DNA of 64,000 nucleotides from Methylobacterium sp. R2-1. Its GTDB lineage: Bacteria; Pseudomonadota; Alphaproteobacteria; Rhizobiales; Beijerinckiaceae. Shown here one piece after another: positions 2,972 through 22,083 of the stretch (the first letter of the stretch is position 1; every line of letters begins with the position of its first letter). A program made the translations under genes and the position numbers. A model generated the notes under the pieces. That model saw only the letters and a program-made list of their open reading frames with translations. It had not been told where the DNA came from and did not search any database. The stretch is taken from assembly GCF_014191355.1 (NCBI RefSeq), contig NZ_JACHWM010000006.1:1-64000 (forward strand), in the 5' to 3' direction.

Positions 2972-4036
2972 ATGAGCCACGGCCCCGATCTCGACCGTGA
3001 TCGCAGTTTCGTGCTCGCGCAGCGCAGCTTCGAGCTGATGCGCGACTACTGCGCCTGCGCCACCCCGCGGGCCTACGCCGTGTGGTACCTCTACGTGTCC
3101 GGCACCCAGCCGCTGATGAACGACGCAATCAAGCGGCTCACCACGCAGAACGGCACGCTGACGAGCGCTGACATCGAAGGATTGCACGACGCCTACATCG
3201 ACGGGCGCCGCCTCGCCGTGGAGGTGGATCGGATGAATTCGAGCCTCATCGCCGAGGTCGAGGGCATCATGGAGATGATCGAAGTCTCGATCCGCTCCAC
3301 GACCCAGTACGGCGAGTCGCTCCAGGCCCTGTCGCAGGATATCGCCAACACGGCGACGACGCGGGCGCGCCTGCGTGAGGTCGTCACCACGATCATCGCC
3401 AATACCCGCGACGTGACCGCCAATAACCGCACGCTCGAAGCGCGGATGCGCGAGAGCCGCAGCGAGATCGAATCGCTGCGCGAGACGCTGGAGGCGGCCC
3501 GCCTGGAGAGCCTGACCGACGCCCTGACCGGCCTGGGCAACCGCAAGAGCTTCGAGACGGCGCTGCACCGGGCCTGCGGTGCGCCGGATGCCGGACGCCG
3601 GCCGACGAGCCTGATCGTCCTCGACATCGACTATTTCAAGCGCTTCAACGACCTCTACGGCCACCTGACCGGGGATCAGGTGCTGCGCCTCGTCGCCGTC
3701 GTCATGCGCGAGCATGTGGGGCAGCCGGGTGCGACGCTCGCCCGCTTCGGCGGCGAGGAATTCGGCATCGTCCTTCCGGAGACGGACCTGCCGGAGGCGC
3801 GCGCCGTCGCGGAACGGGTGCGCACCAGCGTGACCGGCCGCGAACTCGTGAAGCGGTCGACGGGAGAGTCGCTCGGCAAGGTTACCGTCTCGCTCGGCGT
3901 CGCGACCCGGCTTGAGGATGACAATGCCGTCTCGCTCCTGGAGCGGGCGGATGCCTGCCTGTTTGCCGCCAAGCGCGCCGGCCGCAACCGCACCCTCGAC
4001 GAGACAGAGGCAGCGGCCCTGCGCGACGTAGCCTGA
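2972..4036 (+). CDS. GGDEF-domain diguanylate cyclase
   Basis: Makes cyclic di-GMP from two GTP. The last ~180 residues form a GGDEF domain: DALTGLGNRKSFE at its start, DIDYFKRFND as the metal/nucleotide-binding strand, and an intact active site ARFGGEEFGIVLP. No RxxD inhibitory site is present five residues before GGEEF, so product inhibition through that site is unlikely. The N-terminal ~170 residues hold an uncharacterised helical domain (MRDYCACATPRAYAVWYLY) and a long coiled coil (about residues 120-180), with no membrane segment, so the enzyme is cytoplasmic. The ATG at 2972 is chosen because CAGGAG lies upstream; an in-frame GTG at 2918 is the alternative. Confidence 0.9.
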   Translation: MSHGPDLDRDRSFVLAQRSFELMRDYCACATPRAYAVWYLYVSGTQPLMNDAIKRLTTQNGTLTSADIEGLHDAYIDGRRLAVEVDRMNSSLIAEVEGIMEMIEVSIRSTTQYGESLQALSQDIANTATTRARLREVVTTIIANTRDVTANNRTLEARMRESRSEIESLRETLEAARLESLTDALTGLGNRKSFETALHRACGAPDAGRRPTSLIVLDIDYFKRFNDLYGHLTGDQVLRLVAVVMREHVGQPGATLARFGGEEFGIVLPETDLPEARAVAERVRTSVTGRELVKRSTGESLGKVTVSLGVATRLEDDNAVSLLERADACLFAAKRAGRNRTLDETEAAALRDVA

Positions 4037-4106
4037 GCCACAGGCAGGGACGGCGCCCGTCAACTGTGTCGCACCGATTGCCGCGACGGGCAGCCGCCCT
4101 CCCCGA

Positions 4107-4487
4107 TTAAGCCGGGGCGCCGGCCGCCAGGCGCTCCGGATTCGCGGGGGTGATCGCCACCGACTCACCGCAGCCGCAGGCCGAGGTCTGGTTCGGATTG
4201 TTGAACACGAACTGCGACGACAGCTTGGTCGTCTGGAAGTCCATCTCGGTGCCAAGCAGGAACAGCACCGCCTTGGGGTCGATGAACACGGTCACGCCCC
4301 GATCCTCGATCACGTCCTCGCCGGCCTTGCGCTCCTCGGCATATTCCATCGTGTAGGACATGCCGGCACAGCCGCCGTTCTTCACACCGACGCGAAGCCC
4401 CGCGATGGGGCGATCGGCATCGGCCATGATCGCTTTGATCCGATCCGCCGCGCGGTCGGTCAGCGTGATCACCTTGAAACCTGACAT
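4107..4487 (-). CDS. sufA: A-type Fe-S carrier protein SufA/HesB
   Basis: A 126-residue HesB/IscA/SufA family protein that receives Fe-S clusters from the SufBCD scaffold and passes them to apo-proteins. It has the three invariant cysteines: GGCAG (about residue 40) and the C-terminal CGCG pair. The start at 4487 is preceded by AGGAGAGAGA; the longer upstream extension has no homology. It is the last gene of the minus-strand suf operon, separated from sufT by ~470 bases that contain a Uma2 remnant on the other strand, so it may also have its own promoter. Confidence 0.95.
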   Translation of the reverse strand: MSGFKVITLTDRAADRIKAIMADADRPIAGLRVGVKNGGCAGMSYTMEYAEERKAGEDVIEDRGVTVFIDPKAVLFLLGTEMDFQTTKLSSQFVFNNPNQTSACGCGESVAITPANPERLAAGAPA

Positions 4488-4662
4488 CGTGGTCTCTCTC
4501 CTGCGGCCGGGTTCAAGGCCCGGGCGGGTGAGTCTTTCGTGGGTCTTCAAGAGATAAGCACTCCTCCACCGCTGGTCCACCGGGACCCTCGACGCACGGG
4601 TCGATTGCCGCGCGCTATGCTGAATCGGTGACGGAGGATGCGATGGCCGAGCAAGGCGGCGG

Positions 4663-4908
4663 ATGACGCCGGAAGAGTTCTTCGCGTGGCAGCTTCATCA
4701 AGAGGAATGCTACGAACTCGTCGGCGGCGTGCCAGTCCTGCGCCGCCGTGATGCCCGGCAGCAGCACGACCCGGCCACCGTCAACATCATCGTTTCGCTG
4801 CACACGCAACTGCGCGGCTCGGGCTGCCGGCCGATGACGGCAGACATCTATGACGGATTGACGTTCGGACCGCGATGGGATCCTGCCGGCACCCCGCCGG
4901 AGGGCTGA
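4663..4908 (+). pseudogene. Internally deleted Uma2-family (DUF820) nuclease remnant
   Basis: The first ~62 residues (MTPEEFFAWQLHQEECYEL to LRGSGCRPMTADI) match the N-terminus of Uma2-family putative endonucleases, which are about 190 residues long and multicopy in Methylobacterium. Directly after TADI the sequence becomes YDGLTFGPRW and ends, resembling the C-terminal tail of the family. The central ~100 residues carrying the PD-(D/E)XK-type catalytic core are missing, consistent with an in-frame internal deletion. It lies on the opposite strand between sufA and sufT. The family match is from recognition of the sequence and was not searched. Confidence 0.7.
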
Positions 4909-4957
4909 AGCGCGCCGACCTTGCAGAGGCCGCAAGGCCGACCGATTGGACGGTCCC

Positions 4958-5341
4958 TTACCACATATCCAGCGCGACGCGGGCCTCGTCGGACATCCGG
5001 CTCTGGTCCCACGGCGGGTCGAACACCATCGTGACGGAGCAGGACTGCACGCCGGGTACGGCCGAGACCGCGTTCTCGACCCAGCCCGGCATCTCGCCGG
5101 CCACGGGACAGCCCGGAGCGGTCAGGGTCATGTCGATCAGAACGCGCCGGTCGTCCTCGATCTGCACCCGGTAGATCAGGCCGAGCTCGTAGATGTCGGC
5201 GGGAATCTCGGGATCGTAGACGGATTTCAGCGCGGCGACGATGTCGTCGGTGAGGCGGTCGATCTCTTCCGCGGGAATCGCGGAGGCCGCCGCGAGGGCG
5301 GGGGTGTTGGTGCCCCCGGTGATGGTGGCGTCGGTGCTCAT
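4958..5341 (-). CDS. sufT: SUF system accessory protein SufT (MIP18/DUF59 family)
   Basis: This 127-residue protein has the DUF59 signature: DIVAALKSVYDPEIPADIYELGLIY, then TLTAPGCPVAGEMP with the conserved cysteine, then FDPPWDQSRMSDEAR. SufT helps Fe-S cluster maturation, especially under high demand. The start at 5341 has GGAAGGAG eight bases upstream. It sits ~50 bases after sufS in the same direction. The first ~20 residues (Ala/Thr-rich) are not part of the domain. Confidence 0.93.
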   Translation of the reverse strand: MSTDATITGGTNTPALAAASAIPAEEIDRLTDDIVAALKSVYDPEIPADIYELGLIYRVQIEDDRRVLIDMTLTAPGCPVAGEMPGWVENAVSAVPGVQSCSVTMVFDPPWDQSRMSDEARVALDMW

Positions 5342-5392
5342 CGGATCACTCCTTCCGGCCTCCGTCCACGGCGGCCGAAACTCCTAAAAGAA

Positions 5393-6637
5393 TCAGGCGA
5401 ACAGCATCTCGGCCTTGGCCAGCGCCTCGGCGAGGGCGTCAATCTCTGCGGTCGTATTATACAGACCGAACGAGGCGCGACAGGTCGAGGTCACGCCGAA
5501 GCGCGTGAGCAGGGGCATGGCGCAGTGGGTGCCCGCCCGCACCGCCACACCCTGGCGGTCGATCACGGTGGCGATGTCGTGGGCGTGCGCGCCCTTCACC
5601 TCGAAGGCGATGACGCCGCCCTTGTCGCGGGAATTGCCGATCTGGCGGATCGAATTCATCGCGCCGAGACGCTCCTGCGCGTAGGCGGTCAGCATCGCCT
5701 CGTGCGCGGCGATGTTTTCGCGGCCGAGATCCATCATGAATTCCAGCGCCGCGCCGAGGCCGACCGCCTCGATGATCGCCGGCGTGCCCGCCTCGAAGCG
5801 GTGCGGCGGGTCGTTGTAGCTGATCGCGTCCTGCGTCACCGTGCGGATCATCTCGCCGCCGCCCTGATAGGGCGGCAGCCGGTCCAACCACTCCTTCTTG
5901 CCGTAGAGCACGCCGATGCCGGTCGGCCCGTAGACCTTGTGGCCGGTGAAGACGAAGAAGTCGCAGTCGAGTGCGCGCACGTCGATCGGGCGATGCACCG
6001 CGCTCTGCGCGCCGTCGAGCAGCACCGGCACGCCGTGGGCATGGGCGATGCGCACGATCTCCTCCGCCGGCGTCACCGTGCCGAGCACGTTCGACATGTG
6101 GGTGATCGCCACCATCTTGGTGCGCGGCGTGAAGAGCTTCTCGTACTCCTCGACCAGGAAGTTGCCGTCGTCATCGACCGGCGCCCACTTGATGACGGCG
6201 CCGCGCCGCTCGCGCAGAAAATGCCAGGGCACGATGTTGGAGTGGTGCTCCATGATCGAGAGGATGATCTCGTCCCCCTCCCCGATCAGGCCCGCCCAGC
6301 CCATGGAGGAGGCCACGAGGTTGTAGGCCTCGGTGGCGTTGCGGGTGAAGATGATCTCGTCGGTCGAGGCGGCGTTGAGGAACTGGCGCGTGGTCTCGCG
6401 CGCACCCTCGAAACCCTCGGTCGCGGCATTGGCCATGTAGTGCAAGCCGCGATGGACGTTGGCGTAGCCGGTCTCCATGCAGGAAACCATCGCGTCGATG
6501 ACCCGCTTGGGCTTTTGCGACGAGGCGGCGTTGTCGAGATAGACCAGCGGCTTACCGTAGACTTTTTCCGAGAGGATCGGGAATTGCCTCCGGATCGCCT
6601 CGACGTCGTAGGGAGTGGCGGGGACGGGTGCGTTCAT
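5393..6637 (-). CDS. sufS: SUF-type cysteine desulfurase SufS (group II)
   Basis: A PLP enzyme that removes sulfur from L-cysteine to supply SufBCD. At 414 residues it matches the family length. FTGHKVYGPTGIGVLYG contains the PLP lysine, and the catalytic cysteine is in VRAGTHCAMPLL (about residue 372), the RxGxHCA context of group II desulfurases. NAASSQKP and HRGLHYMANAAT are SufS signatures. The start MNAPVPATPYDVEAIRR at 6637 is chosen for homology, with AAGG about ten bases before it; an in-frame ATG at 6673 is possible. This operon also has a second, IscS-like desulfurase at its 5' end. Confidence 0.95.
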   Translation of the reverse strand: MNAPVPATPYDVEAIRRQFPILSEKVYGKPLVYLDNAASSQKPKRVIDAMVSCMETGYANVHRGLHYMANAATEGFEGARETTRQFLNAASTDEIIFTRNATEAYNLVASSMGWAGLIGEGDEIILSIMEHHSNIVPWHFLRERRGAVIKWAPVDDDGNFLVEEYEKLFTPRTKMVAITHMSNVLGTVTPAEEIVRIAHAHGVPVLLDGAQSAVHRPIDVRALDCDFFVFTGHKVYGPTGIGVLYGKKEWLDRLPPYQGGGEMIRTVTQDAISYNDPPHRFEAGTPAIIEAVGLGAALEFMMDLGRENIAAHEAMLTAYAQERLGAMNSIRQIGNSRDKGGVIAFEVKGAHAHDIATVIDRQGVAVRAGTHCAMPLLTRFGVTSTCRASFGLYNTTAEIDALAEALAKAEMLFA

Positions 6638-6743
6638 GTTCGCGACCTTGGATCCTGTGCTGTCCGGGTCCATCGCCGCCCGCCGGAACAGGTTCGGCGC
6701 CAATGAGCTTGGCCGGTTCCTCGGGAGGAACCGGCCAGCAGGG

Positions 6744-8066
6744 TCAGCCGCGCGCCGCCAGCCAAGCCTCGATCCCACCGATCAGCGCGTCGCGCGCGCC
6801 CTCGTGCGTGACCGTCTCCACCGCCTCGCCGACGAAGGCCTGAACCAGCAGGCTCTCGGCGGTGGCGCGCGGCAAGCCGCGGGCCATGAGGTAGAACAGC
6901 AGGTCCTCGTCCGGCGCGCCGCAGGTGGCGCCGTGGCCGCAGGCGACGTCGTCGGCGAAGATCTCCAGCTCCGGCTTGTTCATCATCTGACCATCATCGG
7001 TCAGGAGCAGGCAGTCGGACTTCATCTTGCCGTCGGTCTGCTGCGCGACCTGACGGACGATGATCTTGCCCTGGAACACGCCGGTGGAATCGCCGTCGAT
7101 CACCGTCTTGAACATCTCGCGGCCAACGCCGCCCGTCGCCGCGTGGTCGGCGAGCAGGGTCGAATCCGCGAGTTGGCCGTGGCCGAGCAGCGTCGCGCCG
7201 TTGACCACGGCGTTGGCGTCCTCGCCCGCGACGTGCAGGTAGATCTGGTGACGCGAGAGCTTGGCGCCGGTGACGAGATTGACGGTTTCGAGCTGCGCCC
7301 GAGCGTCGAGCCGCACCGACAGCGTCGAGAGAGCGATGGCCGCGTCGCCTTCCCGGTTGAGACGGGTGTGGCGGAAGGCGGCCTCGGCGCCGATATGCAC
7401 GTCGAGCGCGTCGTTGGGCTGGTAGGTCAGCCCGGACGGTCCCTCGTGGCTCTCCAGCAGGAAGAACTCCGCGCCGGCGCCGATATCGACCAGCACGCGG
7501 GTCGCGGTCGAGAAGGCGGCCTCACCCATGCCGACGAAGCGCAGGTGCAGCGGCGTCGCCGGCTTGGCGCCGGGGACGACCGAGATCAGTGCGCCATCGG
7601 CCAGGAAGGCGGTGTTGAGCTGATAGATCGGGTTCTCGCGCACCTGCTCGACGGGGGCCAGAAGCTTGAGGCGCGCATCGCCCTTTCCCATCGCCTCGTT
7701 GAGCGGCGTGACCGTCACGCCCTCGGGCACCCGATCGAGATCCGACAGGGCGGCGACGAGGTGGCCGTTGACGAAGGTGAGGCGGACGGCCTCGACCCCG
7801 TTGAAGCCCGTGGCCCCGGCGACGGCGGCCCGGGCCGCGTCCTCGCTCGGCGCCTCGGCGGGCGGCGCGGCCTCGGTGATGGCGGCGCGCAGGTCGGTGT
7901 ACTTGAACGCCTCGACCCGGCGGCTCGGCAGGCCGGTCGCCTCGAAGAAGCGGAACGCCTCCTCGCGGCTGATCGCCTGCTCGCTGGCGAAGCCTTTCCG
8001 CGCGGACTCGAAGAGTTTGGAGAGGCCGGCCTCGGCGGGGGAGCGGAGATTGGTGACGTCGGCCAT
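6744..8066 (-). CDS. sufD: Fe-S assembly scaffold subunit SufD
   Basis: A 440-residue SufBD-family protein that pairs with SufB and two SufC to form the SufBC2D scaffold. The beta-helix core and C-terminal segment carry the family motif (DDVACGHGATCGAPDEDLLFYLMARGL), with the conserved His near the C-terminus where clusters are assembled with SufB. The ATG overlaps the sufC stop by one base (TGATG), a sign of translational coupling; a GTG just upstream is in frame but less likely. About 107 bases separate it from sufS. Confidence 0.95.
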   Translation of the reverse strand: MADVTNLRSPAEAGLSKLFESARKGFASEQAISREEAFRFFEATGLPSRRVEAFKYTDLRAAITEAAPPAEAPSEDAARAAVAGATGFNGVEAVRLTFVNGHLVAALSDLDRVPEGVTVTPLNEAMGKGDARLKLLAPVEQVRENPIYQLNTAFLADGALISVVPGAKPATPLHLRFVGMGEAAFSTATRVLVDIGAGAEFFLLESHEGPSGLTYQPNDALDVHIGAEAAFRHTRLNREGDAAIALSTLSVRLDARAQLETVNLVTGAKLSRHQIYLHVAGEDANAVVNGATLLGHGQLADSTLLADHAATGGVGREMFKTVIDGDSTGVFQGKIIVRQVAQQTDGKMKSDCLLLTDDGQMMNKPELEIFADDVACGHGATCGAPDEDLLFYLMARGLPRATAESLLVQAFVGEAVETVTHEGARDALIGGIEAWLAARG

Positions 8067-12860: not shown

Positions 12861-15800
12861 TTATCCCGCCCCATGCACCACCGGCACGGCGGGCGCCCCC
12901 TCCCATTCCGAGTGCGCCGGAATCGACTCGCCCTTCATCACGATGGTGAGCGGGCGCAGCCGCGCGTAATCGCCAACCCTCGTGTCGTAGAGGACGGTCG
13001 AGAAGGCTCCGACCGAGACGCCGCGCCCGACCATGACGCGGCCGACCTTCATGATGCGGTCCTCGTAGAGGTGGGTCTGGAGCGCGGCCGAGCGGTTGAT
13101 CGCCGCGAAGTCGCCGATCTCCACGCAGTCGAACTCGGTGATGTCGGTCATCAGGAGGCAGGCGCCCTTCCCCACCTTCACACCGAAGAGCCGCAGCACC
13201 CAGGGCAGGAACGGCGTGCCCATCAGGTGCTCCAGCAGCACCTTGCCGGCCAAGCCCCAGTAGGCGACGGCGATGGCCTCGGTCCGCATCGCCCACCACG
13301 ACCACATCGGCCGCATGCCGGGGCGGTAGACGCCCATCAGCAGCCATTTGAGGGCGATGACGCTGCTCGTCTGGATCAGAGCGATGACGACGCTCGCCGC
13401 GACGAAGGCCACCGCCAAGCCGACCCAGTCACCTTCGAGGATCTCGGGGTAGAACACCCAATCGATCGCGCAGATGGCGAGCGAGATGTAGAGCATCGGC
13501 GAGAACGAGGTGGCGAAGGCCTCGAACAGGCCGCGCCGGAGCTTGGCCCGGACGCTCGGCTCGAAGGTCTGTGCGCTTGATCCGAGATCGACCTTCTGCC
13601 GCACGGGCAGGCGGATCGGCGGCGAGCCGAACCACGTCTCGCCCGGACCCATCGCGGCATTGGCCGGAGGCTTCGACTTAATGCCGATCAGCACGTCGTC
13701 GGGCAGCCGCGTGCCCGGCGGCAACACGCCGTCATTGCCGACGAAGACGCGGGCGCCGGTTTCGACCGGATGGAGGTGCATCCAGCCGCGGCGGATCTCT
13801 TCTTCACCGACCACCACCTCGTCGGCGATGAAGTTGTTGGCGCCGACCGAGACGAGGTCGTGGCGCGAGCCGAGATTGGTCGAGATCTCGGCGCCCCGGC
13901 CCATCCGCGCGCCCATCAGACGGTACCACGCCCGCATGTAGACGGTGGCGAAGAGCGAGGAGAGCGTCTCCAGGGTCACCTCGGAGGCGAGCGCCACCAG
14001 CCACTTGCGCAAGTAGAAGCCCGACCAGATCGAGTAGGTGCCGCCTGTCACCCGCGGCAGCACCACCCAGCGGATGGCCGCGATGAGCAGCACCGTGCCC
14101 GCCGTCATCAGCATGGCCGTGGGCCAGGTCAGCAGCGGCAGGTAGAGGTGGTAGTCGAGATCGGTGACCTCCGAGAGATTGTCCGAGATCTGGTCGAAGA
14201 TGTAGAAGGCCGGAAAGATCGGCAGCAGCCCGACCGCCGGCACCGCCGCGAGCAGGAAGGCGTAGACCGCGCCGAAGGCCGCCCGGCGGGCGGGCGAGGC
14301 CGTGGCGGGTTCGGGCAAGGCGGAAAAGTCGACCGTGCCGACCCGGCGTCCCGGCGAGCCGTCCCAGGCCTCGGCCGGGCCGATCTCGGTGCCGGCGGGC
14401 ACGGTGGTGAGGTCGGCGACCTCGGCATGATCCCCGATCACCGTGCCGGGGCCGATGACGCAGGAGGTGCCGATGGCGACGTCCTCGCCGATCTCGACCC
14501 GGCCGATGACGAGTTCGTTGCCGACGACCTCGGCATTGGCGATGACGAGGCGCCCGCCGAGCGACGCGCCGCGGCCGATGGTGAGGAGGTCGGCGGCCCC
14601 GACATCGAGGTCGGAGATCAGCACGTCCTCGCCGATCCGCGCGCCGAGCAGACGCAGATAGGTGACGATGACGGGCGAGCCCTGAAGCCACTTGATGTGC
14701 ACCAGCGGCGTCAGGCGTTGCGCCAGCCACCAGCGGTAATAGTAGACGCCCCAGAGCGGATAGCGGCCTGCCTTAGTCCGCCCGAGGATCAGCCACTTGG
14801 CGGCGATCGCGATCGTCGCGGTCACGGCGTTGATGCCGATATAGACGAGCAAGAGGACGCCGAGTTCGCCCCAGAAGCCGAGCCCGCCGCCGGTGAGCAG
14901 CAGGTAGGTGACGAAGATGCCGAGCCACTGCGCGGTGGCGAGCGCGATCACGAACGGGAGTGCAACGGCCTGCGCCAGCCCACACAAGGCCCGGCGCAGG
15001 AGCGAGGGCGGGGCGAAGCTCAGGTCCCGCACGGCCGTCTGCGCGCCGGCCCCGCCGGTTCGCTCGATCAGACTCGCGGCCATCGCCCGCAGCGTGCGGC
15101 CGGCATAGACGTCCTGCAGGGTGATGCCGGCGAGGGCCGGGGTCTCGCGCACCGCGCCGACGAAGCGGGCGGCGAGCAGCGAGTGGCCGCCGAGTTCGGA
15201 GAAGAAGTCGGCCTCGAGCCCGATCGGCCCGTCGCCGAACACCTTCTTGGCGGCAGCCAGCAAGGCGGCCTCGGTCTCGTTGTCGGGGGCCTCTTGCTCG
15301 CCCTCCGCCACCGCGACCGTGAGCGGGGCGATCCGCAACGCCTTGCGGTCGACCTTGCCGGAGGTCAGGCGGGGCAGGGTCTCCACCGTCTCGAAATGGC
15401 CGGGCACCATGTAAGGCGGCATCTGCGCCGCCAGACTCTTTCGGAGCGCCGCGCGGTCGAGATCGGCGTCGCGCTCTGGGACAAGGAAGGCGACGAGGCG
15501 ATCGACCTCGTTGTCCCGGCGCAGCACCACCGCCGCTTGATTGACGCCCCCTTCTCCCCGGATACGGGCCTCGATCTCGCCGAGCTCCACGCGAAAGCCG
15601 CGGATCTTGACCTGATCGTCGATGCGGCCGTGGAAGACGATGTCGCCCTCCGGCGTCATCGAGACCGCGTCGCCCGAGCGGTAGAGCACCGGGTCGGTCC
15701 CGTCGGACGGGTAGGGGTTGGCGACGAATTTTTCGGCCGTCAATTCGGGCCGCTTGAGGTAGCCCGCGGCGACGCCGGGACCGCCGATGAGCAGTTCGCC

Positions 15801-16922
15801 TTGCTCGCCGGGCTTCAGGAGAGTCAGCGCCTCGTCGGCGACGTAGACCGAATAATTCGGGATCGGACCGCCGATGGTGACGGGCTGGCCCGGTCGCATC
15901 TCGGCGGCGGTCGCCACCACGGTGGCCTCGGTCGGACCGTAGGTGTTGAACAGGCGCCGCTGATCGGTCGCCCAGCGCGCCACCAGCGGCTCGGGCAGAG
16001 CCTCGCCGCCCAGAAGCACGAGGCGGACGCTGGGCAGGTCGCCGGGGATCATGGCGAGCAGGGTCGGCACCGTGTCGAGCACGGTGACGCCCGCTCCCGC
16101 GATGATCGCGGGCAGGGACTCGACATCTCCCATCATGGCCGGGCTCGCCACGAACAGGCAGGCGCCGACGAGATAGGGGACCCAGATCTCCTCCATCGAG
16201 AGATCGAAGGCGACGGAGGCGCCCTGGAACACCACATCGTCGGCGCGCATGCCGTAGACGGCGTTGCCCGAGCGCAGGAAGTGGCAGATGTTGGCGTGGC
16301 TGATGACGATGCCCTTCGGCACGCCGGTCGAGCCCGACGTGTAGATCAGGTAGGCCGGGTGCTCGGGCGTGAGGCCGGCGGCGGCGAGATCGGGCGCACA
16401 GGCCCCCTGCCCCGCCGTCAGCACCTCTTGCGTCGTCAGCGCGGGCGTGCCCTCCGGCGCCTGGAGCCGCAGGGCCTCCGAGACGAGGAGCGCCTTGGCC
16501 TCCGCGTCGCCCAGGCAGACCGCGACCCGGTCGGCGGGCGCCTCGGCATCGAAGGGGAGCCAGGCGGCGCCCGACTTGGTGATGCCGATCTGCGCGATCA
16601 GCAGTTCGGTGCCGCGGGCCATCCACAATCCCACCACATCCCCCGGGCCGATGCCGCGGGCGAGAAGCCCGGCGGCGATGGCGTCGGAGCGGGCATCGAC
16701 CTGTCCGTAGGTCAGGACCGGACGGCGCCCGCCCGACGCGGGCGCGGCGGCGTCGATCAGGCAGGGGGCGTCGGCGCGCTCCGCCGCGCTCGCCCGGAAC
16801 AGGTCGGCCAGGGTCTCCCGACGGATCAGGTCGGGGCGCGCCAGCCCCCGCAGGACGGCGCGGCCGACGAGGCTCCCGCCCGGCCCCTCGTCGGGCCGCG
16901 CCACCTCGGCGAGACCGCTCAT
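12861..16922 (-). CDS. Pls/PosA-family NRPS-like protein (A-PCP-membrane-beta-helix)
   Basis: A 1353-residue protein. Residues ~38-530 are an adenylation domain: LIYTSGSTGVPKG (192-204), FDLSMEEIWVP at the substrate pocket, NTYGPTEATV, YRSGDAV, RGFRVELGEIE and GKVDRKALR. Residues ~550-620 are a carrier domain with the phosphopantetheine Ser581 in ELGGHSLLAARF. The remaining ~700 residues alternate hydrophobic helices with left-handed beta-helix hexapeptide repeats, the C-terminal architecture of Pls-type synthetases (relatives of Streptomyces epsilon-poly-lysine synthetase). No condensation or thioesterase domain is present. The family activates an amino acid and probably extends or transfers it at the membrane; the product here is unknown. 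ATG 16922 (MSGLAEVARPDEG) is preferred to the upstream ATG 16991. Confidence 0.9.
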   Translation of the reverse strand: MSGLAEVARPDEGPGGSLVGRAVLRGLARPDLIRRETLADLFRASAAERADAPCLIDAAAPASGGRRPVLTYGQVDARSDAIAAGLLARGIGPGDVVGLWMARGTELLIAQIGITKSGAAWLPFDAEAPADRVAVCLGDAEAKALLVSEALRLQAPEGTPALTTQEVLTAGQGACAPDLAAAGLTPEHPAYLIYTSGSTGVPKGIVISHANICHFLRSGNAVYGMRADDVVFQGASVAFDLSMEEIWVPYLVGACLFVASPAMMGDVESLPAIIAGAGVTVLDTVPTLLAMIPGDLPSVRLVLLGGEALPEPLVARWATDQRRLFNTYGPTEATVVATAAEMRPGQPVTIGGPIPNYSVYVADEALTLLKPGEQGELLIGGPGVAAGYLKRPELTAEKFVANPYPSDGTDPVLYRSGDAVSMTPEGDIVFHGRIDDQVKIRGFRVELGEIEARIRGEGGVNQAAVVLRRDNEVDRLVAFLVPERDADLDRAALRKSLAAQMPPYMVPGHFETVETLPRLTSGKVDRKALRIAPLTVAVAEGEQEAPDNETEAALLAAAKKVFGDGPIGLEADFFSELGGHSLLAARFVGAVRETPALAGITLQDVYAGRTLRAMAASLIERTGGAGAQTAVRDLSFAPPSLLRRALCGLAQAVALPFVIALATAQWLGIFVTYLLLTGGGLGFWGELGVLLLVYIGINAVTATIAIAAKWLILGRTKAGRYPLWGVYYYRWWLAQRLTPLVHIKWLQGSPVIVTYLRLLGARIGEDVLISDLDVGAADLLTIGRGASLGGRLVIANAEVVGNELVIGRVEIGEDVAIGTSCVIGPGTVIGDHAEVADLTTVPAGTEIGPAEAWDGSPGRRVGTVDFSALPEPATASPARRAAFGAVYAFLLAAVPAVGLLPIFPAFYIFDQISDNLSEVTDLDYHLYLPLLTWPTAMLMTAGTVLLIAAIRWVVLPRVTGGTYSIWSGFYLRKWLVALASEVTLETLSSLFATVYMRAWYRLMGARMGRGAEISTNLGSRHDLVSVGANNFIADEVVVGEEEIRRGWMHLHPVETGARVFVGNDGVLPPGTRLPDDVLIGIKSKPPANAAMGPGETWFGSPPIRLPVRQKVDLGSSAQTFEPSVRAKLRRGLFEAFATSFSPMLYISLAICAIDWVFYPEILEGDWVGLAVAFVAASVVIALIQTSSVIALKWLLMGVYRPGMRPMWSWWAMRTEAIAVAYWGLAGKVLLEHLMGTPFLPWVLRLFGVKVGKGACLLMTDITEFDCVEIGDFAAINRSAALQTHLYEDRIMKVGRVMVGRGVSVGAFSTVLYDTRVGDYARLRPLTIVMKGESIPAHSEWEGAPAVPVVHGAG

Positions 16923-17178
16923 CCGATGCTCTGCTGCCGATTCCACGTGCTGTCCATTCCCGGATCGGTCGAACCTCGCGCCGACGCTCACGGCGCGCGA
17001 TCACCCGCCCCATGATCGGCACCCTTGGCGGTTTTACGACAGGATCGCGCCATACAAATGATTGTGGTCCGGCAATCCGCCCGGACGTCCCGCACGCGTT
17101 CCATATACGGGATGGACGGCCAGGAAACCGGTGCTCCTGAACACCCCGCCGCCGCGGCATCCGTCATGACCGCGTAGC
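16923..17178. other. Intergenic, no gene seen
   Basis: A 256-base gap between the NAD-kinase-like gene and the downstream Pls-type gene, both on the minus strand. It has no hairpin of note. The size suggests the Pls-type gene has its own promoter, but none was identified with confidence. Confidence 0.4.
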
Positions 17179-18105
17179 TCACCCGGTCACGAGGTGAAGA
17201 GTCCGGTCGGCCGGCGCGATCCGCACCCGCCGCCCCCAGCCGAACCCCAAAAAATCCTGCTCGATGCCGTCGGCGAAGACGACGCCGCCCTCGTTCATCC
17301 GCGAGGTGACGAGGAGAGGCGCGTCGGTCAGCTTGCCGGCCCGCAGCCGCGTGGCGGTGGCGACGCTCGGGAACGGCTCGCGCACCCAGTAGCCCACCGC
17401 CCGCTCATCGGGCGCGAGGCGGAAGGACAGACCGGTCGCCTCGGCGATCGAGCGGGCCCAGCCGCTGGCCCCGGTGCCGGAGGCGACGATGAGGCCGCTG
17501 GAGGAATGCTCCTCCGCCTCGATCGCCTCCCCTTGCGTCCGAGGTGATGCCGGCGCGGGCATCTCGATCCGGTAGCGGGCCGATTGATGGCTGCGATGGC
17601 CGACAAAGATCTCGTTGAGGGCAAACAGGCGCTCGGTCCCGTCGATCACCGCCTCGACCATGGTGCGCTGCTCGATCGCGGCCGCCCCGGCGGCACTCGC
17701 CGGCAGCAGCCGGGGGAGCCGCTCGACAGGGTTGCGCGCCAGCACGCCGTCGTAGAGGTCGGGCGCCGGATTTACCCCGATCACCGGCTGCGCGCCCAGA
17801 TACTTCGCGACGTTGGCGATCAGACCATCCTGCCCGACGGCGACGACCACGTCGTCTTGCCCGAACAGGAAGCGGTCGAGGTCGGCCCGCCGCACCAGGG
17901 TCTGGCGCCACTCGCCCGGCACCGCGGCCCGCGCCTGGGCCAGCACCGCGTGGAAGCGCTCGTGGCGTGCCTCGATTGCGGCGAGCCCCTGGCCGCGGCT
18001 CTCCAGGAAGAAGCGGGCCTGTCCCCGCGTGGCGTGCCGGGCAATCAGCAGCTCGTAATCGGTCTCGCGGGTGACGAAGACCGCCCGAGGGGTGAGCGCG
18101 GCCAT
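17179..18105 (-). CDS. Divergent NAD-kinase-like (ATP-NAD kinase superfamily) protein
   Basis: A 308-residue protein with the fold signatures of NAD kinases but diverged motifs. VVAVGQDGLIANVAKYL (GQDG at 91-94) corresponds to the GGDGT nucleotide/catalytic loop with Asp retained. RLFALNEIFVGH (NE at 164-165) corresponds to the conserved NE motif. SSGLIVASGTGASGW matches the downstream SxSTGSTA-like loop. An N-terminal ~60 residues (TDYELLIARHATRGQARFFLE) differ from housekeeping NadK. It is the third gene of a unit with an SPFH protein and an NrtR-like Nudix regulator, so its substrate is probably NAD or a related nucleotide. True NAD kinase activity is not established. Confidence 0.75.
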   Translation of the reverse strand: MAALTPRAVFVTRETDYELLIARHATRGQARFFLESRGQGLAAIEARHERFHAVLAQARAAVPGEWRQTLVRRADLDRFLFGQDDVVVAVGQDGLIANVAKYLGAQPVIGVNPAPDLYDGVLARNPVERLPRLLPASAAGAAAIEQRTMVEAVIDGTERLFALNEIFVGHRSHQSARYRIEMPAPASPRTQGEAIEAEEHSSSGLIVASGTGASGWARSIAEATGLSFRLAPDERAVGYWVREPFPSVATATRLRAGKLTDAPLLVTSRMNEGGVVFADGIEQDFLGFGWGRRVRIAPADRTLHLVTG

Positions 18106-18116
18106 GGGATCCTCCC

Positions 18117-19097
18117 TCAGCGGGCCGGAAGGCCGCTCGGTCGGCGGACCTCGCCGAGCAGGGTGGCGAGCAGGTCCGGCGTGACGTTGACGTGCTCGAT
18201 CGTGTCGAGCTTGCCCGCCAGCGCCTGGGCGGCGAGCCCGAGCAGGGTGCCCGGCGCCACGTCGCGGTAGATCGCGACCCGCGCCCGCTCGGCCTCGGCC
18301 CGCGCCCCCTCGACCATGCGGATGCGCTCGGCCTCCGCGCCGGCCTCGATGGCTTCCGCCTCGGCCCGCCCCTGCGCCCGGTTGCGGGCGTTCTGCGCCT
18401 CCTCCGCGATCAGCAGGCTCTCGCGCCGGGCCAGCTCGGTCCTGGTGGCGAGTTCGTTCTCGGCGATCGCCCGCTCCTTCTCCACCGCCAGCGCCCGGCG
18501 GGCGAAGGTGGCCTCGTCCGCCTTCTGCTGCAGCGCCTCGTAGGTCGGCGTCTGCAGGGCACGTTCCAACTCGCTTGACGGGGCGAGGTTGGTGAGCCGC
18601 ACCGAGACCACCGCCACGCCGATCTCGGCGAGCGAGGGCTCGGCGCCGAGGGTCGCCTGTAACTGCCCGCGCAGGGCTTCCGGCCCGGCATCGAGCAGCG
18701 CACGCACCGGCGCCTGTCCCAAAAACTGCAGCACGGTCTGGTTGGCCAGCCCGGCGATGCGCGCCTCGATCCGCTCGATCGGCTCACCCTGAGGACGGCC
18801 GGTGCGCAGGTCGACGGAAAAGTCGACGCGGGCGGCGAGCCGCTCGGGATCGGCGACGTGCCAGCCGATGCTGCCCTGCACTGCGACCGCCTGGAAATCC
18901 GCGCTGCGGCCGCGGACGAACAGCGTCATCTCGCGGTCATCCATCGGCAGTTCGCTGATGCTCGCGGTCTCCGGGCGGAACCAGAAGACGAGGCCGCGCC
19001 CGCTCTGGCGCGGGCGGCCGTTGCGGTAGCGGATCACGTAGTGGCTGGCCTCGCTCCGAAGCTGGGAGAGAACGCCGAAGCGGCGGATCGTGGCCAT
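18117..19097 (-). CDS. SPFH/Band 7 domain protein
   Basis: A 326-residue protein. Residues ~20-200 look like an SPFH domain (FRPETASISELPMDDREMTLFVRG, AVQGSIGWHVADPERLAARVDF, LAEIGVAVVSVRLTNLAPSSELERAL), followed by a long Ala/Glu/Arg coiled coil (~205-285) typical of prohibitin/stomatin relatives and a short C-terminal domain. There is no N-terminal membrane helix, unlike classical flotillins, so it may be peripheral. The start at 19097 has AAGGAG and lies one base after the stop of the Nudix-like gene, with the kinase-like gene 11 bases downstream. It is tightly coupled to both and probably scaffolds a complex. Confidence 0.85.
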   Translation of the reverse strand: MATIRRFGVLSQLRSEASHYVIRYRNGRPRQSGRGLVFWFRPETASISELPMDDREMTLFVRGRSADFQAVAVQGSIGWHVADPERLAARVDFSVDLRTGRPQGEPIERIEARIAGLANQTVLQFLGQAPVRALLDAGPEALRGQLQATLGAEPSLAEIGVAVVSVRLTNLAPSSELERALQTPTYEALQQKADEATFARRALAVEKERAIAENELATRTELARRESLLIAEEAQNARNRAQGRAEAEAIEAGAEAERIRMVEGARAEAERARVAIYRDVAPGTLLGLAAQALAGKLDTIEHVNVTPDLLATLLGEVRRPSGLPAR

Positions 19098-19098
19098 G

Positions 19099-19866
19099 TC
19101 ATTCTCCTTGCGAAAGGGTTGGCGAGGGGGGGTGCGAGGGATTTGGACGGAAGCGGTACAGTTCGGCGGGACGGTAGGACGTCCCCGTCTCGAACCGGCC
19201 GGTGGGTTCGAGCCAGCCGCGGTCGAGCATGCGGCGGCGGAAGGCGGGCTTGTTGAGGCGCGTGCCGAGGATCGCCTCGTGCACGTCCTGGAGCTGGCGC
19301 AGGGTGAAGAGCTCCGGCAACAGACTGAAGCCGACCGCCGAAGTGTCGAGCTTGCCCCGGAGCCGCCGCAGGGCGAGGGCGACGATCTCGGCATGGTCGA
19401 AGGCGAGCGGCAGCGCCGCGCCGTCGATCGCGTGGACCGTCACCGGCCCCTCACCCGCCGACGACGCCGCAATCGTGCCGGGATGCAGGGCCGGGGCACG
19501 CGCCAGCGCCTCGGCGAAGGCAGCCTCGGTCAGGAGCGCGAGATAGGCGACCGTGATGATGCGCATGCGCGGATCGCGCTCCACGGCGCCGAAGGTGTAG
19601 AGCTGTTCCAGATGCGCCCGCGCCCCGCCCGCCTTCTCGTGCAGGACCCGCGCGGCGGCCGCATCGAGCGCCTCGTCGATCCCGACGAAGCCGCCGGGCA
19701 GCGCGTGGCGCCCCGCATGCGGGTGGCGGTCGCGTTGCAGCAGCAGGATGGTGGGGCGGCCGCCGGGGAGCCCCAGCAGCATCAGATCGACGGCCACCGC
19801 GGGCCGGGCGTAATCGGCGGGATCATAGCGCGCCAGGAAGGCGGCCTCGGATTCGGTTCGGCTCAC
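19099..19866 (-). CDS. NrtR-like regulator: degenerate Nudix domain plus winged helix
   Basis: A 255-residue protein. Residues ~20-150 are a Nudix fold. The box at 59-80 is G-x5-E-x7-R-V-L-H-E-K-A-G, so two of the three catalytic Glu of REUXEE are replaced (V74, K78), which predicts loss of hydrolysis. Residues ~180-240 (LFTLRQLQDVHEAILGTRLNKPAFRRRMLDRG in pieces) match the winged helix of NrtR, which senses ADP-ribose-type ligands and represses NAD genes. The GTG at 19866, with GAGAGG before it, is preferred; a TTG at 19884 is in frame. It heads the SPFH/NAD-kinase-like operon and likely autoregulates through the palindrome just upstream. The last ~12 residues (SHPPSPTLSQGE) look like a read-through tail. 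Confidence 0.82.
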   Translation of the reverse strand: MSRTESEAAFLARYDPADYARPAVAVDLMLLGLPGGRPTILLLQRDRHPHAGRHALPGGFVGIDEALDAAAARVLHEKAGGARAHLEQLYTFGAVERDPRMRIITVAYLALLTEAAFAEALARAPALHPGTIAASSAGEGPVTVHAIDGAALPLAFDHAEIVALALRRLRGKLDTSAVGFSLLPELFTLRQLQDVHEAILGTRLNKPAFRRRMLDRGWLEPTGRFETGTSYRPAELYRFRPNPSHPPSPTLSQGE

Positions 19867-19885
19867 GGAAGCCCTCTCGAACAAG

Positions 19886-19934
19886 CATATATCCGCTATG
19901 CGTATTAGTTATTATCATGCTGGATATATGTCAA
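19886..19934 (-). promoter_or_regulatory. Promoter with long inverted repeat upstream of the NrtR-like operon
   Basis: CATATATCC (19886-19894) and GGATATATG (19922-19930) form a perfect 9-bp inverted repeat with a 27-base AT-rich spacer. On the minus strand a consensus -35 TTGACA (19929-19934) overlaps the outer arm; the -10 lies in the AT-rich spacer (TAACTA at 17-base spacing is the best fit). A dimeric or tetrameric regulator bound here would cover the promoter, as expected for an autoregulated NrtR-type repressor. Confidence 0.6.
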
Positions 19935-21013: not shown

Positions 21014-21280
21014 CTAACGGGCGTCGTGGCCCTTACCCTTGGCGCCGGGGGACGAACCAGAGCCGGCATCGTTCGGACCCGTGCTGTTGGCCGTACCGGA
21101 TCGGCTCTTGTCACCGGAGGTCGGGCCGCTGCCGGCCGCCCCGGGCGAGGCTCCGGAACCGGCATCGTTCGGCCCCGTGCTGTCGGCGGTGCCGGAGCGG
21201 CTGGTGCCCGAACCTTCGGCAGCGAAGGCGGCGGGCGTGAACAGGAGGGTGCTCGCGAGAGCGAGGGTCAGGGCCTTCAT
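21014..21280 (-). CDS. Small secreted Gly/Ser/Asn-rich protein with a duplicated unit
   Basis: An 88-residue protein with signal peptide MKALTLALASTLLFTPAAFA. The mature part carries two near-identical copies of SRSGTA(D/N)STGPNDAGSG(A/S)SPGA separated by a short linker, and ends in KGKGHDAR. The composition suggests a disordered periplasmic or extracellular peptide. The start at 21280 has GGGAGA eight bases upstream. No function recognised. Confidence 0.75.
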   Translation of the reverse strand: MKALTLALASTLLFTPAAFAAEGSGTSRSGTADSTGPNDAGSGASPGAAGSGPTSGDKSRSGTANSTGPNDAGSGSSPGAKGKGHDAR

Positions 21281-22083
21281 GGCGTGTCTCCCTGTTGCTG
21301 GCATGATGGGCCCTCGGGAAACCGACGCTCCGGGATGCTGTTCCGTCCCGGCCCTCTTCACCCTGCCTCATCGGCACTCCGCCCCGTTAGACAGCGCGTC
21401 CGGTGCGGTGGCGGCGTTCGGTGGCCCCGTCCTTCGACGAGGCCGGCGCGCCTTCGACGACCGGCTGACACCGCCAACCCGCCGCCCTCGGAGGCGCCGG
21501 ATCATTTCGGCCGGCTCAGCATGAAGGGGGTGCGGGCCGGCGCCTTGCCGGGTTGGACCACCCTGACAGTGGCCGCATTCTCCTCGTCTCGCGGTTCCGA
21601 CGCTCTGGGAAACCGTCCCGATCGGACAGGACACCCGGTCCCCGGCGGCGCAACGATCGGGATCGTGCGTCACCCTGCCTTTTCAAGCGGGCGGCCTCAC
21701 GCGCCTTCCGAGCCTGGGCAGATCGAGAGCACTTGCCCCGCCGCGCGTCAGGACCCGAGCCGTTAGACTTGCAGCACCGCGCGACAAGGCTCTGCTCGGA
21801 AGCGGGCATGTCTTGCGAAAGATTCGGTACGCGTCCTTGATCTTCTGCCACGAGCGCATCCCCGCGCTGCGATGGGCCTAGAGACGCCATCGTCAAGCCT
21901 TTCGCGGGCGAACGCACGATAATTTGATCAATAGAACCAGCCAGATCTGGCGGCCATCAACGCTTCATTATTGAGAAAATGTTCTTTCGAGCACATCTAC
22001 ACCCTACGCTGCCACATTGAATAGTTTTGTCCGTTGCATTAGCCTCAAAGGACCCACGAATACGTTCCGGTCAGGGAAGGGCG
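21281..22083. other. 803-base region without a supportable gene
   Basis: Short ORFs on both strands here have Arg/Pro-rich translations without recognisable domains, signal peptides or ribosome-binding sites and are treated as noise. The right end (21900-22040) is AT-rich and probably carries the promoter of the small gene at 22084. Nothing else identifiable. Confidence 0.5.

What the first reader, a model, noticed from the sequence alone, without database searches (positions are those of the whole stretch)
17179..19934. Three-gene unit: NrtR-like Nudix regulator, SPFH protein, NAD-kinase-like protein
The genes are packed with gaps of 1 and 11 bases. The first has a Nudix box missing two of its three catalytic Glu plus an NrtR-type winged helix, so it should sense a nucleotide (ADP-ribose type) and not hydrolyse it. 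The third is a divergent NAD-kinase-fold protein with GQDG and NE motifs, and the middle is a soluble SPFH scaffold. Together this reads as a ligand-regulated NAD(P)-related complex that is not a biosynthetic operon. Possible roles: NAD homeostasis under stress, or a defence/damage response to NAD cleavage. The combination is not one I can name.
Basis: partly seen in the sequence, partly recalled or inferred. Interest (0 to 1): 0.8.

Follow-up and report, generated by a model that had tools for sequence, protein, structure and literature searches.

The report
Nudix-repressor, SPFH, NADK2-like kinase module
Three neighbouring bacterial genes (a repressor that looks built to sense ADP-ribose, a ring-scaffold protein, and a second NAD-kinase-like enzyme resembling the human mitochondrial one) recur together in many bacteria under a single dedicated DNA switch, pointing to an undescribed way of adjusting NAD/NADP when NAD is being broken down.

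Summary
In detail: nrtR-like, SPFH and NAD-kinase-like genes lie on the minus strand with gaps of 1 and 11 bases. They are a real module. In 80 related genome loci SPFH lies directly upstream of the kinase in 78 and the regulator is present in 75; the SPFH-kinase pair also occurs in Actinomycetota and Spirochaetota. A 45-bp composite palindrome (19886-19930), overlapping a TTGACA box, precedes the operon and is its only copy in this genome; 21 chosen module-bearing genomes also show one site each, plus one weak half-site. The regulator lacks two Nudix catalytic Glu but keeps most ADP-ribose contact residues reported for Shewanella NrtR. The kinase has the NAD-kinase fold; among solved structures human mitochondrial NADK2 is closest, yet 110 of 110 relatives carry GQDG, not GGDG. 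A housekeeping NAD kinase is encoded elsewhere. Best reading: an ADP-ribose-type ligand releases the repressor and switches on an SPFH-scaffolded accessory NAD kinase. Ligand, activity and complex formation are inferred. No defence evidence was found, and no description in the open papers searched.

The parts
19099..19866 (-). nrtR-like repressor gene: Nudix-like sensor domain without full catalytic box plus NrtR winged helix (a longer ORF from TTG 19884 is possible)
   Evidence: Pfam NUDIX and NrtR_WHD; NCBIfam NF050029 160.6 bits, below its cut-off of 400; PDB relatives AraR 5e-35 and the SoNrtR entry 3gz5 6e-30 (that 3gz5 is SoNrtR is inferred from residues matching PMC4666351); ADP-ribose contact residues
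18117..19097 (-). SPFH/Band 7 gene, 326 aa, no N-terminal membrane segment, long C-terminal helix
   Evidence: Pfam Band_7 2.4e-14; AlphaFold2 model pLDDT 75.5, pTM 0.43, helix 186-278; leading fold matches are SPFH proteins: HflK/C, prohibitin, stomatin, erlin, and vault; hydropathy of windows in the first 60 residues at most 0.53
17179..18105 (-). NADK2-like kinase gene, 308 aa, GQDG in place of GGDG
   Evidence: AlphaFold2 pLDDT 85.9; best structural match human NADK2, Foldseek E 6e-19, Z 25.8 over 280 residues, 24% identity; family profile E 2.5e-21 to NADK2 against 9e-7 to the best other NAD kinase in the PDB
19886..19930 (-). 45-bp composite palindromic operator: outer arms CATATATCC/GGATATATG around an inner, partly palindromic core
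   Evidence: inverted repeat; conserved in 72 of 80 related loci; only site in the genome
19929..19934 (-). TTGACA, candidate -35 box overlapping the outer operator arm
   Evidence: TTGACA or TTGACT at this place in 62 of 72 conserved sites; the last two letters belong to the operator itself; the consensus scanner found no full promoter

Best explanation
A self-contained, autoregulated metabolic switch. At rest the Nudix-type repressor, probably as one or two dimers, sits on the 45-bp operator across the -35 region and keeps its own operon off. When an ADP-ribose-like dinucleotide (a product of NAD breakdown) or a related molecule accumulates, it binds the degenerate Nudix pocket and the repressor lets go. 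The operon then makes an SPFH protein, which oligomerises into a ring or cage, and an accessory NADK2-type kinase acting on NAD(H) or a close relative, scaffolded by the SPFH ring. The result would be a local or inducible rise in NADP(H), or protection of the dinucleotide pool, on top of housekeeping NAD kinase. Shown here by computation: gene unit, its conservation, the dedicated operator-like site, the fold and kinship of each protein, conserved ADP-ribose contact positions, and a separate housekeeping NAD kinase. Inferred: the ligand, the sign of regulation, kinase activity and substrate, SPFH oligomerisation, and SPFH-kinase contact.
For: Beyond the three genes and ORFs overlapping them, no neighbour family is shared by more than 13 of the 80 loci. 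Operator: 72 of 80 loci, shuffle maximum 0.4 against scores mostly 30-56, single site in own genome, one site in each of 21 module-bearing genomes plus one weak half-site in G582; three Rhizobium-type loci show the same 45-bp geometry with different letters. Sensor: SoNrtR Arg41, Arg98 and Lys76 and an aromatic at Phe15 are kept in 91, 91, 87 and 87 of 93 linked regulators; arabinose-binding BtAraR lacks Arg98 and Lys76 (residue roles from passages of PMC4666351). Four linked regulators have a complete Nudix box. Kinase: NADK2 kinship and fold. Housekeeping NadK elsewhere: own genome, 19 of 20 module-bearing genomes, 18 above the cut-off.
Against: GGDG, a hallmark of NAD kinases, is GQDG in 110 of 110, so activity or substrate may differ. 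Of the SoNrtR contacts Asn43 is kept in 4 of 93 and Tyr10 in 77 of 93, only 3 of 16 in the further lineages, where Lys76 is 12 of 16. NrtR relatives can bind other ligands (arabinose in BtAraR, NAD in NdnR: PMC4666351 passages). No nrtR was found near the pair in the Streptomyces, Kitasatospora and Roseomonas plasmid loci or in L112 (contig edge), L120, L123, so the pair can exist without it. The operator matrix and model were built from sequences they then score; L096 and L099 have nrtR but no scoring site, and eight Mesorhizobium sites score only 13-23. The SPFH frame is broken in L088 and L094. The window's own kinase is a weaker NADK2 match than many relatives (25 bits by phmmer; not in the best 40).
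Confidence: 0.5

Rival explanations
1. The kinase is not an NAD kinase in action: with GQDG it is a pseudokinase or NAD(P)-binding subunit that gates the SPFH ring, or it phosphorylates another nucleotide such as ADP-ribose itself, clearing the inducing ligand.
For: GQDG in 110 of 110 members, a change fixed in sequences from three phyla, while NE is ND in 17 of 110; public annotation varies between 'sugar kinase', 'ATP-NAD kinase PpnK-type' and hypothetical; the single-sequence Pfam match is below cut-off.
Against: The Asp of the motif, the N of NE, the SSG motif, the TG.G....W loop in the sequences listed, and the NADK fold are kept; dead enzymes usually lose such residues unevenly (general knowledge).
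Confidence: 0.3
2. Anti-phage or damage-response module triggered by NAD cleavage: ADP-ribose released by a NADase induces the kinase and scaffold to restore or shelter the NAD(P) pool.
For: Ligand class inferred from the sensor pocket; sporadic distribution (12 of 397 phylum genomes; 14 of 199 order genomes with E below 1e-40) and occurrence on plasmids.
Against: No PADLOC match for the three proteins, no phage match, one partial viral-contig match, no neighbour family shared by more than 13 of 80 loci. The neighbours themselves were not scanned for defence genes.
Confidence: 0.12
3. An ordinary NrtR-controlled NAD biosynthesis regulon in which this operon is one of several targets.
For: Winged helix and Nudix domains are NrtR-type; NCBIfam's best model is an ADPR responsive repressor, though far below its cut-off.
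Against: No biosynthetic gene in the unit; one operator place per genome in 22 genomes, apart from one weak half-site; the genome has another protein with an NrtR-type winged helix.
Confidence: 0.05

Closest known systems
NrtR family of Nudix-related repressors (SoNrtR, MsNrtR, NdnR; AraR as a sugar-binding cousin)
   Same: Nudix-like sensor plus NrtR winged helix, degenerate catalytic box, most ADP-ribose contact residues, palindromic site at its own promoter
   Different: Target is an SPFH-kinase pair, not NAD synthesis or salvage genes; a 45-bp composite site found once per genome, against a 23-bp palindrome in mycobacteria (PMC6800001 passage) and 27-bp duplexes used for SoNrtR and BtAraR (PMC4666351 passages)
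Human mitochondrial NAD kinase NADK2 and NAD kinases generally
   Same: Full-length fold, NE, SSG and TG.G....W signature shared with NADK2, Asp of the GxDG motif
   Different: GQDG instead of GGDG; bacterial; paired with an SPFH gene in 78 of 80 named loci and 9 of 9 plasmid loci tested, with a 390-770 nt gap in two genomes of one genus
SPFH proteins (HflK/C, prohibitin, stomatin, flotillin, erlin, vault shoulder)
   Same: SPFH domain followed by a long helix, as in ring and cage formers
   Different: No N-terminal membrane segment; gene partner is a kinase and not NfeD or FtsH-linked. The 2009 survey lists two apparently soluble prokaryotic subfamilies, SPFH8 and SPFH9 (PMC2636767, passages read); whether this is one of them was not tested

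Membership tests
NrtR repressor family | Nudix-like domain fused to NrtR winged helix | tested here: met
   Pfam NUDIX 8.6e-9 and NrtR_WHD 6.5e-24
NrtR repressor family | Loss of Nudix catalytic residues | tested here: met
   Two of three catalytic Glu replaced in this protein; four linked relatives have a complete box
NrtR repressor family | ADP-ribose contact residues as in SoNrtR | tested here: met
   Of six contacts named in PMC4666351 the window protein keeps Tyr10, Arg41, Lys76, Arg98, has Tyr for Phe15 and Arg for Asn43; across 93 relatives 77, 91, 87, 91, 87 (aromatic) and 4
NrtR repressor family | Ligand-released DNA binding | not testable with these tools
   Operator-like site found; binding and ligand need experiment
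NrtR repressor family | Controls NAD metabolism genes | tested here: inconclusive
   Target is an NADK2-like kinase of unproven activity; no second full site in 22 genomes
NAD kinase (NADK2-type) | NAD kinase fold | tested here: met
   Foldseek E 6e-19, Z 25.8 to NADK2; other NAD kinases among the 50 entries shown Z 19.8-22.4
NAD kinase (NADK2-type) | GGDG motif | tested here: not met
   GQDG in 110 of 110 distinct members
NAD kinase (NADK2-type) | NE/D motif | tested here: met
   NE 93, ND 17 of 110
NAD kinase (NADK2-type) | Curated family score | tested here: not met
   Pfam NAD_kinase 14.9 bits against cut-off 25.5
NAD kinase (NADK2-type) | Phosphorylates NAD(H) | not testable with these tools
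   Needs assay
SPFH superfamily | SPFH/Band 7 domain | tested here: met
   Pfam Band_7 54.2 bits over cut-off 23.6; SPFH structures top the fold lists
SPFH superfamily | Oligomeric ring or cage | not testable with these tools
   Single-chain model only
Known anti-phage systems (PADLOC) | Match to a defence protein model | tested here: not met
   No match for any of the three proteins

The most novel reading that the evidence does not exclude
The SPFH-linked GQDG kinases are the nearest prokaryotic relatives of the mitochondrial NADK2 clade, whose provenance is called unknown in one phylogeny (PMC6675116, passages), and the module is a bacterial counterpart of a scaffold-bound, breakdown-sensing NADP(H) generator, comparable to NADK2 working in an organelle that also depends on SPFH prohibitin rings.
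Probability: 0.2. Interest if true: 0.85.

Novelty: new variant of a known kind. Interest (0 to 1): 0.62.

Why it matters
NAD and NADP balance is usually taken to rest on one NAD kinase gene in most prokaryotes (PMC6675116, passages). A separately inducible kinase tied to an SPFH scaffold and to a sensor of NAD breakdown would add a regulated layer to NADP(H) supply, give SPFH proteins a metabolic partner other than proteases and NfeD, and offer a bacterial model for the mitochondrial NADK2 family. Every step is testable with three purified proteins and one 45-bp DNA.

Tried and rejected
Chance adjacency: rejected by the counts. Biosynthetic NAD regulon: judged unlikely from one operator place per genome. 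Defence: looked for with PADLOC on the three proteins, phages, viral contigs (one partial 36% match at a contig end, L153, not followed) and shared neighbours; nothing found, but neighbours were not scanned for defence genes. Arabinose-type ligand: BtAraR lacks the Lys and Arg that this family keeps, so judged unlikely.

NADK2 kinship, reverse test: joined fragments of human NADK2 score by phmmer 31.8-47.9 bits against the best family members printed, whose print was cut to 40 rows. In one search, 36 family rows range 24.7-48.7 and five canonical NadK genes 26.0-30.2, so eight family rows fall below the best canonical one. The best other solved NAD kinase scores 24.1, human cytosolic NADK 14.1. 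A BLAST-based genome search with the same fragments was not decisive: 15 of 397 genomes matched, 7 through the SPFH-linked kinase and 8 through other genes, and 5 of the 12 module-bearing genomes gave no match, the own genome among them. A tree was not built: no cytosolic NADK sequence was at hand, and without it the question would stay open. PMC8553519 (passage) reports that human mitochondrial NADK is believed to have come from alphaproteobacteria; PMC6675116 (passages) calls its provenance unknown.

Operator model R1 was built from 59 sites (58 loci and the window); of the 62 loci printed the four lowest-scoring (L046, L050, L054, L063) were left out, as were all weaker sites. Seventeen of the 21 genomes were named through loci that gave training sites, so what adds is the absence of further sites. 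The shuffles kept base content only. Consensus sigma-70 scan found no promoter. In one search part of the printed warnings was cut, not the table of the 60 largest clusters.

Papers: the searches (NrtR with SPFH and NAD kinase; NADK2 with bacterial homolog; NrtR regulons; NADK2 structure; SPFH with sugar kinase and Nudix; band 7 with NAD kinase; SPFH neighbourhoods; SPFH with Nudix and stress) listed no paper that I recognised as describing this unit, among the openly licensed papers held; the longer lists were capped and subscription papers are not covered. Passages only were read of PMC6675116, PMC4666351, PMC8553519, PMC6800001, PMC2636767 and PMC13086221.
Full report
The three minus-strand ORFs lie at 19099-19884, 18117-19097 and 17179-18105, with 1 and 11 bases between them. 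The regulator most likely starts at GTG 19866, behind GAGAGGG (read by eye). SPFH and kinase have Shine-Dalgarno-like AAGGAG and GGAGG just before their starts (read by eye).

The unit is conserved. A search of named genomes gave 129 confirmed relatives of the kinase, of which the best 80 were kept: Methylobacterium/Methylorubrum, Mesorhizobium, Sphingomonas, Novosphingobium, Aureimonas and others. In these 80, an SPFH gene ends within 178 bases of the kinase in 78 (median 10, some overlapping); the other two are a contig edge (L100) and a locus where only the 3' end of SPFH remains (L037). In L088 and L094 the SPFH frame is broken. An nrtR-like gene is on the same strand in 75; of the five without it, three are contig edges (L086, L098, L100), one is L037 and one (L080) lacks it. 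In L065 the regulator is truncated. Apart from these genes and ORFs overlapping them, no neighbour family is shared by more than 13 of the 80 loci, so the three genes are the unit.

Distribution is sporadic. In the order, 16 of 199 genomes match at E 0.001, 14 of them with E below 1e-40, which I count as the family. In the phylum 12 of 397 match at 1e-12, all above 340 bits. Sixty-eight plasmid records match, 57 over at least 80% of the query. I fetched ten of these regions and tested nine for SPFH: nine of nine have it next to the kinase, including Kitasatospora, Streptomyces and Treponema. Six of the nine have an nrtR-type gene, in Treponema 4.3 kb away. Two genomes of one genus (loci L009, L011, L123) have SPFH 390-770 bases upstream and fall outside the distance cut used. 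Phage records have none.

The switch. The region before the operon holds an inverted repeat, CATATATCC/GGATATATG. Seventy-five related upstream regions and the window's own gave a 45-bp composite palindrome, about CATATATcCAataTGCATATTAcTAATATGCAtatTGgATATATG. Seventy of 76 regions score above 8, against a maximum of 0.4 in 1520 shuffles, but the matrix was trained on these sequences. Over whole loci 72 of 80 have a site above 10; of the eight without, six have no, truncated or cut-off nrtR, and two (L096, L099) are real misses. Eight Mesorhizobium sites score only 13-23, with ATATATG arms in other places. TTGACA or TTGACT sits at the left end in 62 of 72. A model of 59 sites finds only this place in the 5.8-Mb genome at E up to 10 and, at E up to 0.1, one place in each of 21 module-bearing genomes, plus a half-site at E 0.06 in G582. 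Three Rhizobium-type loci share the 45-bp geometry with other letters (CTTAGTG, TCAACTAAGTTAGTTGA, CACTAAG). So the repressor appears to have a single target, its own operon.

The sensor. Its nearest solved relatives are AraR and the protein of entry 3gz5, which I take to be SoNrtR because all six residue names given in PMC4666351 fit it with one offset. That paper (passages) names residues touching ADP-ribose. Arg41, Arg98, Lys76 and an aromatic at Phe15 are kept in 91, 91, 87 and 87 of 93 linked regulators; Tyr10 in 77, Asn43 in 4. In 16 regulators from further lineages the numbers are 16, 16, 12, 13 and, for Tyr10, 3. BtAraR has neither Lys76 nor Arg98. In four linked regulators the Nudix box is complete, so part of this branch may hydrolyse its ligand. 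This favours an ADP-ribose-type dinucleotide over a sugar, without proving it.

The kinase. AlphaFold2 gives pLDDT 85.9. The 50 structural matches shown are NAD kinases, human NADK2 first: Foldseek 6e-19, Z 25.8 over 280 residues, against Z 22.4 and below for others. The family profile finds NADK2 at 2.5e-21 and the best other NAD kinase at 9e-7; the window's protein alone finds only NADK2 among NAD kinases at E up to 10. NADK2 and this family share SSG, TG.G....W and the PVIGVN..P....G stretch, where the canonical enzymes compared differ. The reverse comparisons agree mostly, not wholly (see Tried and rejected). The family signature GQDG, in 110 of 110 distinct sequences, departs from GGDG. 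The genome's housekeeping NAD kinase is on another contig, and 19 of 20 module-bearing genomes have an NAD_kinase match elsewhere, 18 above the cut-off, the exception being 61% complete.

The scaffold. The SPFH model is moderate (pLDDT 75.5, pTM 0.43), with a helix of 93 residues; its best matches are HflK/C, prohibitin, stomatin, erlin, and further down vault. In 36 sequences no window in the first 60 residues exceeds hydropathy 0.79; windows near residue 148, inside the SPFH domain, reach 1.97 in some. A soluble or peripherally bound ring is likely.

Mechanism. I commit to an ADP-ribose-type induced, SPFH-scaffolded accessory NAD kinase, at 0.5 for the whole chain and about 0.9 for the anatomy (dedicated repressor and operator controlling an SPFH-kinase pair). 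The weakest link is activity, because of GQDG; the pseudokinase or other-substrate rival gets 0.3. Defence is possible but unsupported.

Novelty. Each part belongs to a known superfamily, so I call it a new variant of a known kind; the combination, its single-copy operator, and the GQDG NADK2-like family were not found in the papers searched.

Noticed in passing
L134 (Acinetobacter lwoffii plasmid) 4980-7841; L154 (Proteus mirabilis) 4001-6828: The kinase gene of this module lies directly beside tetR(H)-tet(H) in one record and close to tet(J) in another; several small plasmids match only a 3' part of the kinase gene. Whether those small plasmids also carry tet genes was not checked.
   Followed up: no
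L130 7541-7867; L119 8401-8694: A short second copy of the kinase's C-terminal stretch lies downstream of the module in two Rhizobium-type loci, perhaps a duplication remnant.
   Followed up: partly
G000:C16:101521-101832 (L003): A second protein with an NrtR-type winged helix (395-aa open frame), possibly NadQ-like by recall; its targets were not examined.
   Followed up: partly
window 12861-16991: A 1376-aa ORF that looks like an AMP-binding domain joined to membrane and hexapeptide-repeat acyltransferase parts, read by eye.
   Followed up: no
window 21014-21361: A small ORF of a likely secreted protein with an internal repeat (SRSGTA.STGPNDAGSG.SPGA), read by eye.
   Followed up: no
L115, L121, L122, L125: Linked regulators with an apparently complete Nudix catalytic box and the NrtR winged helix, possible bifunctional hydrolase-repressors.
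   Followed up: partly
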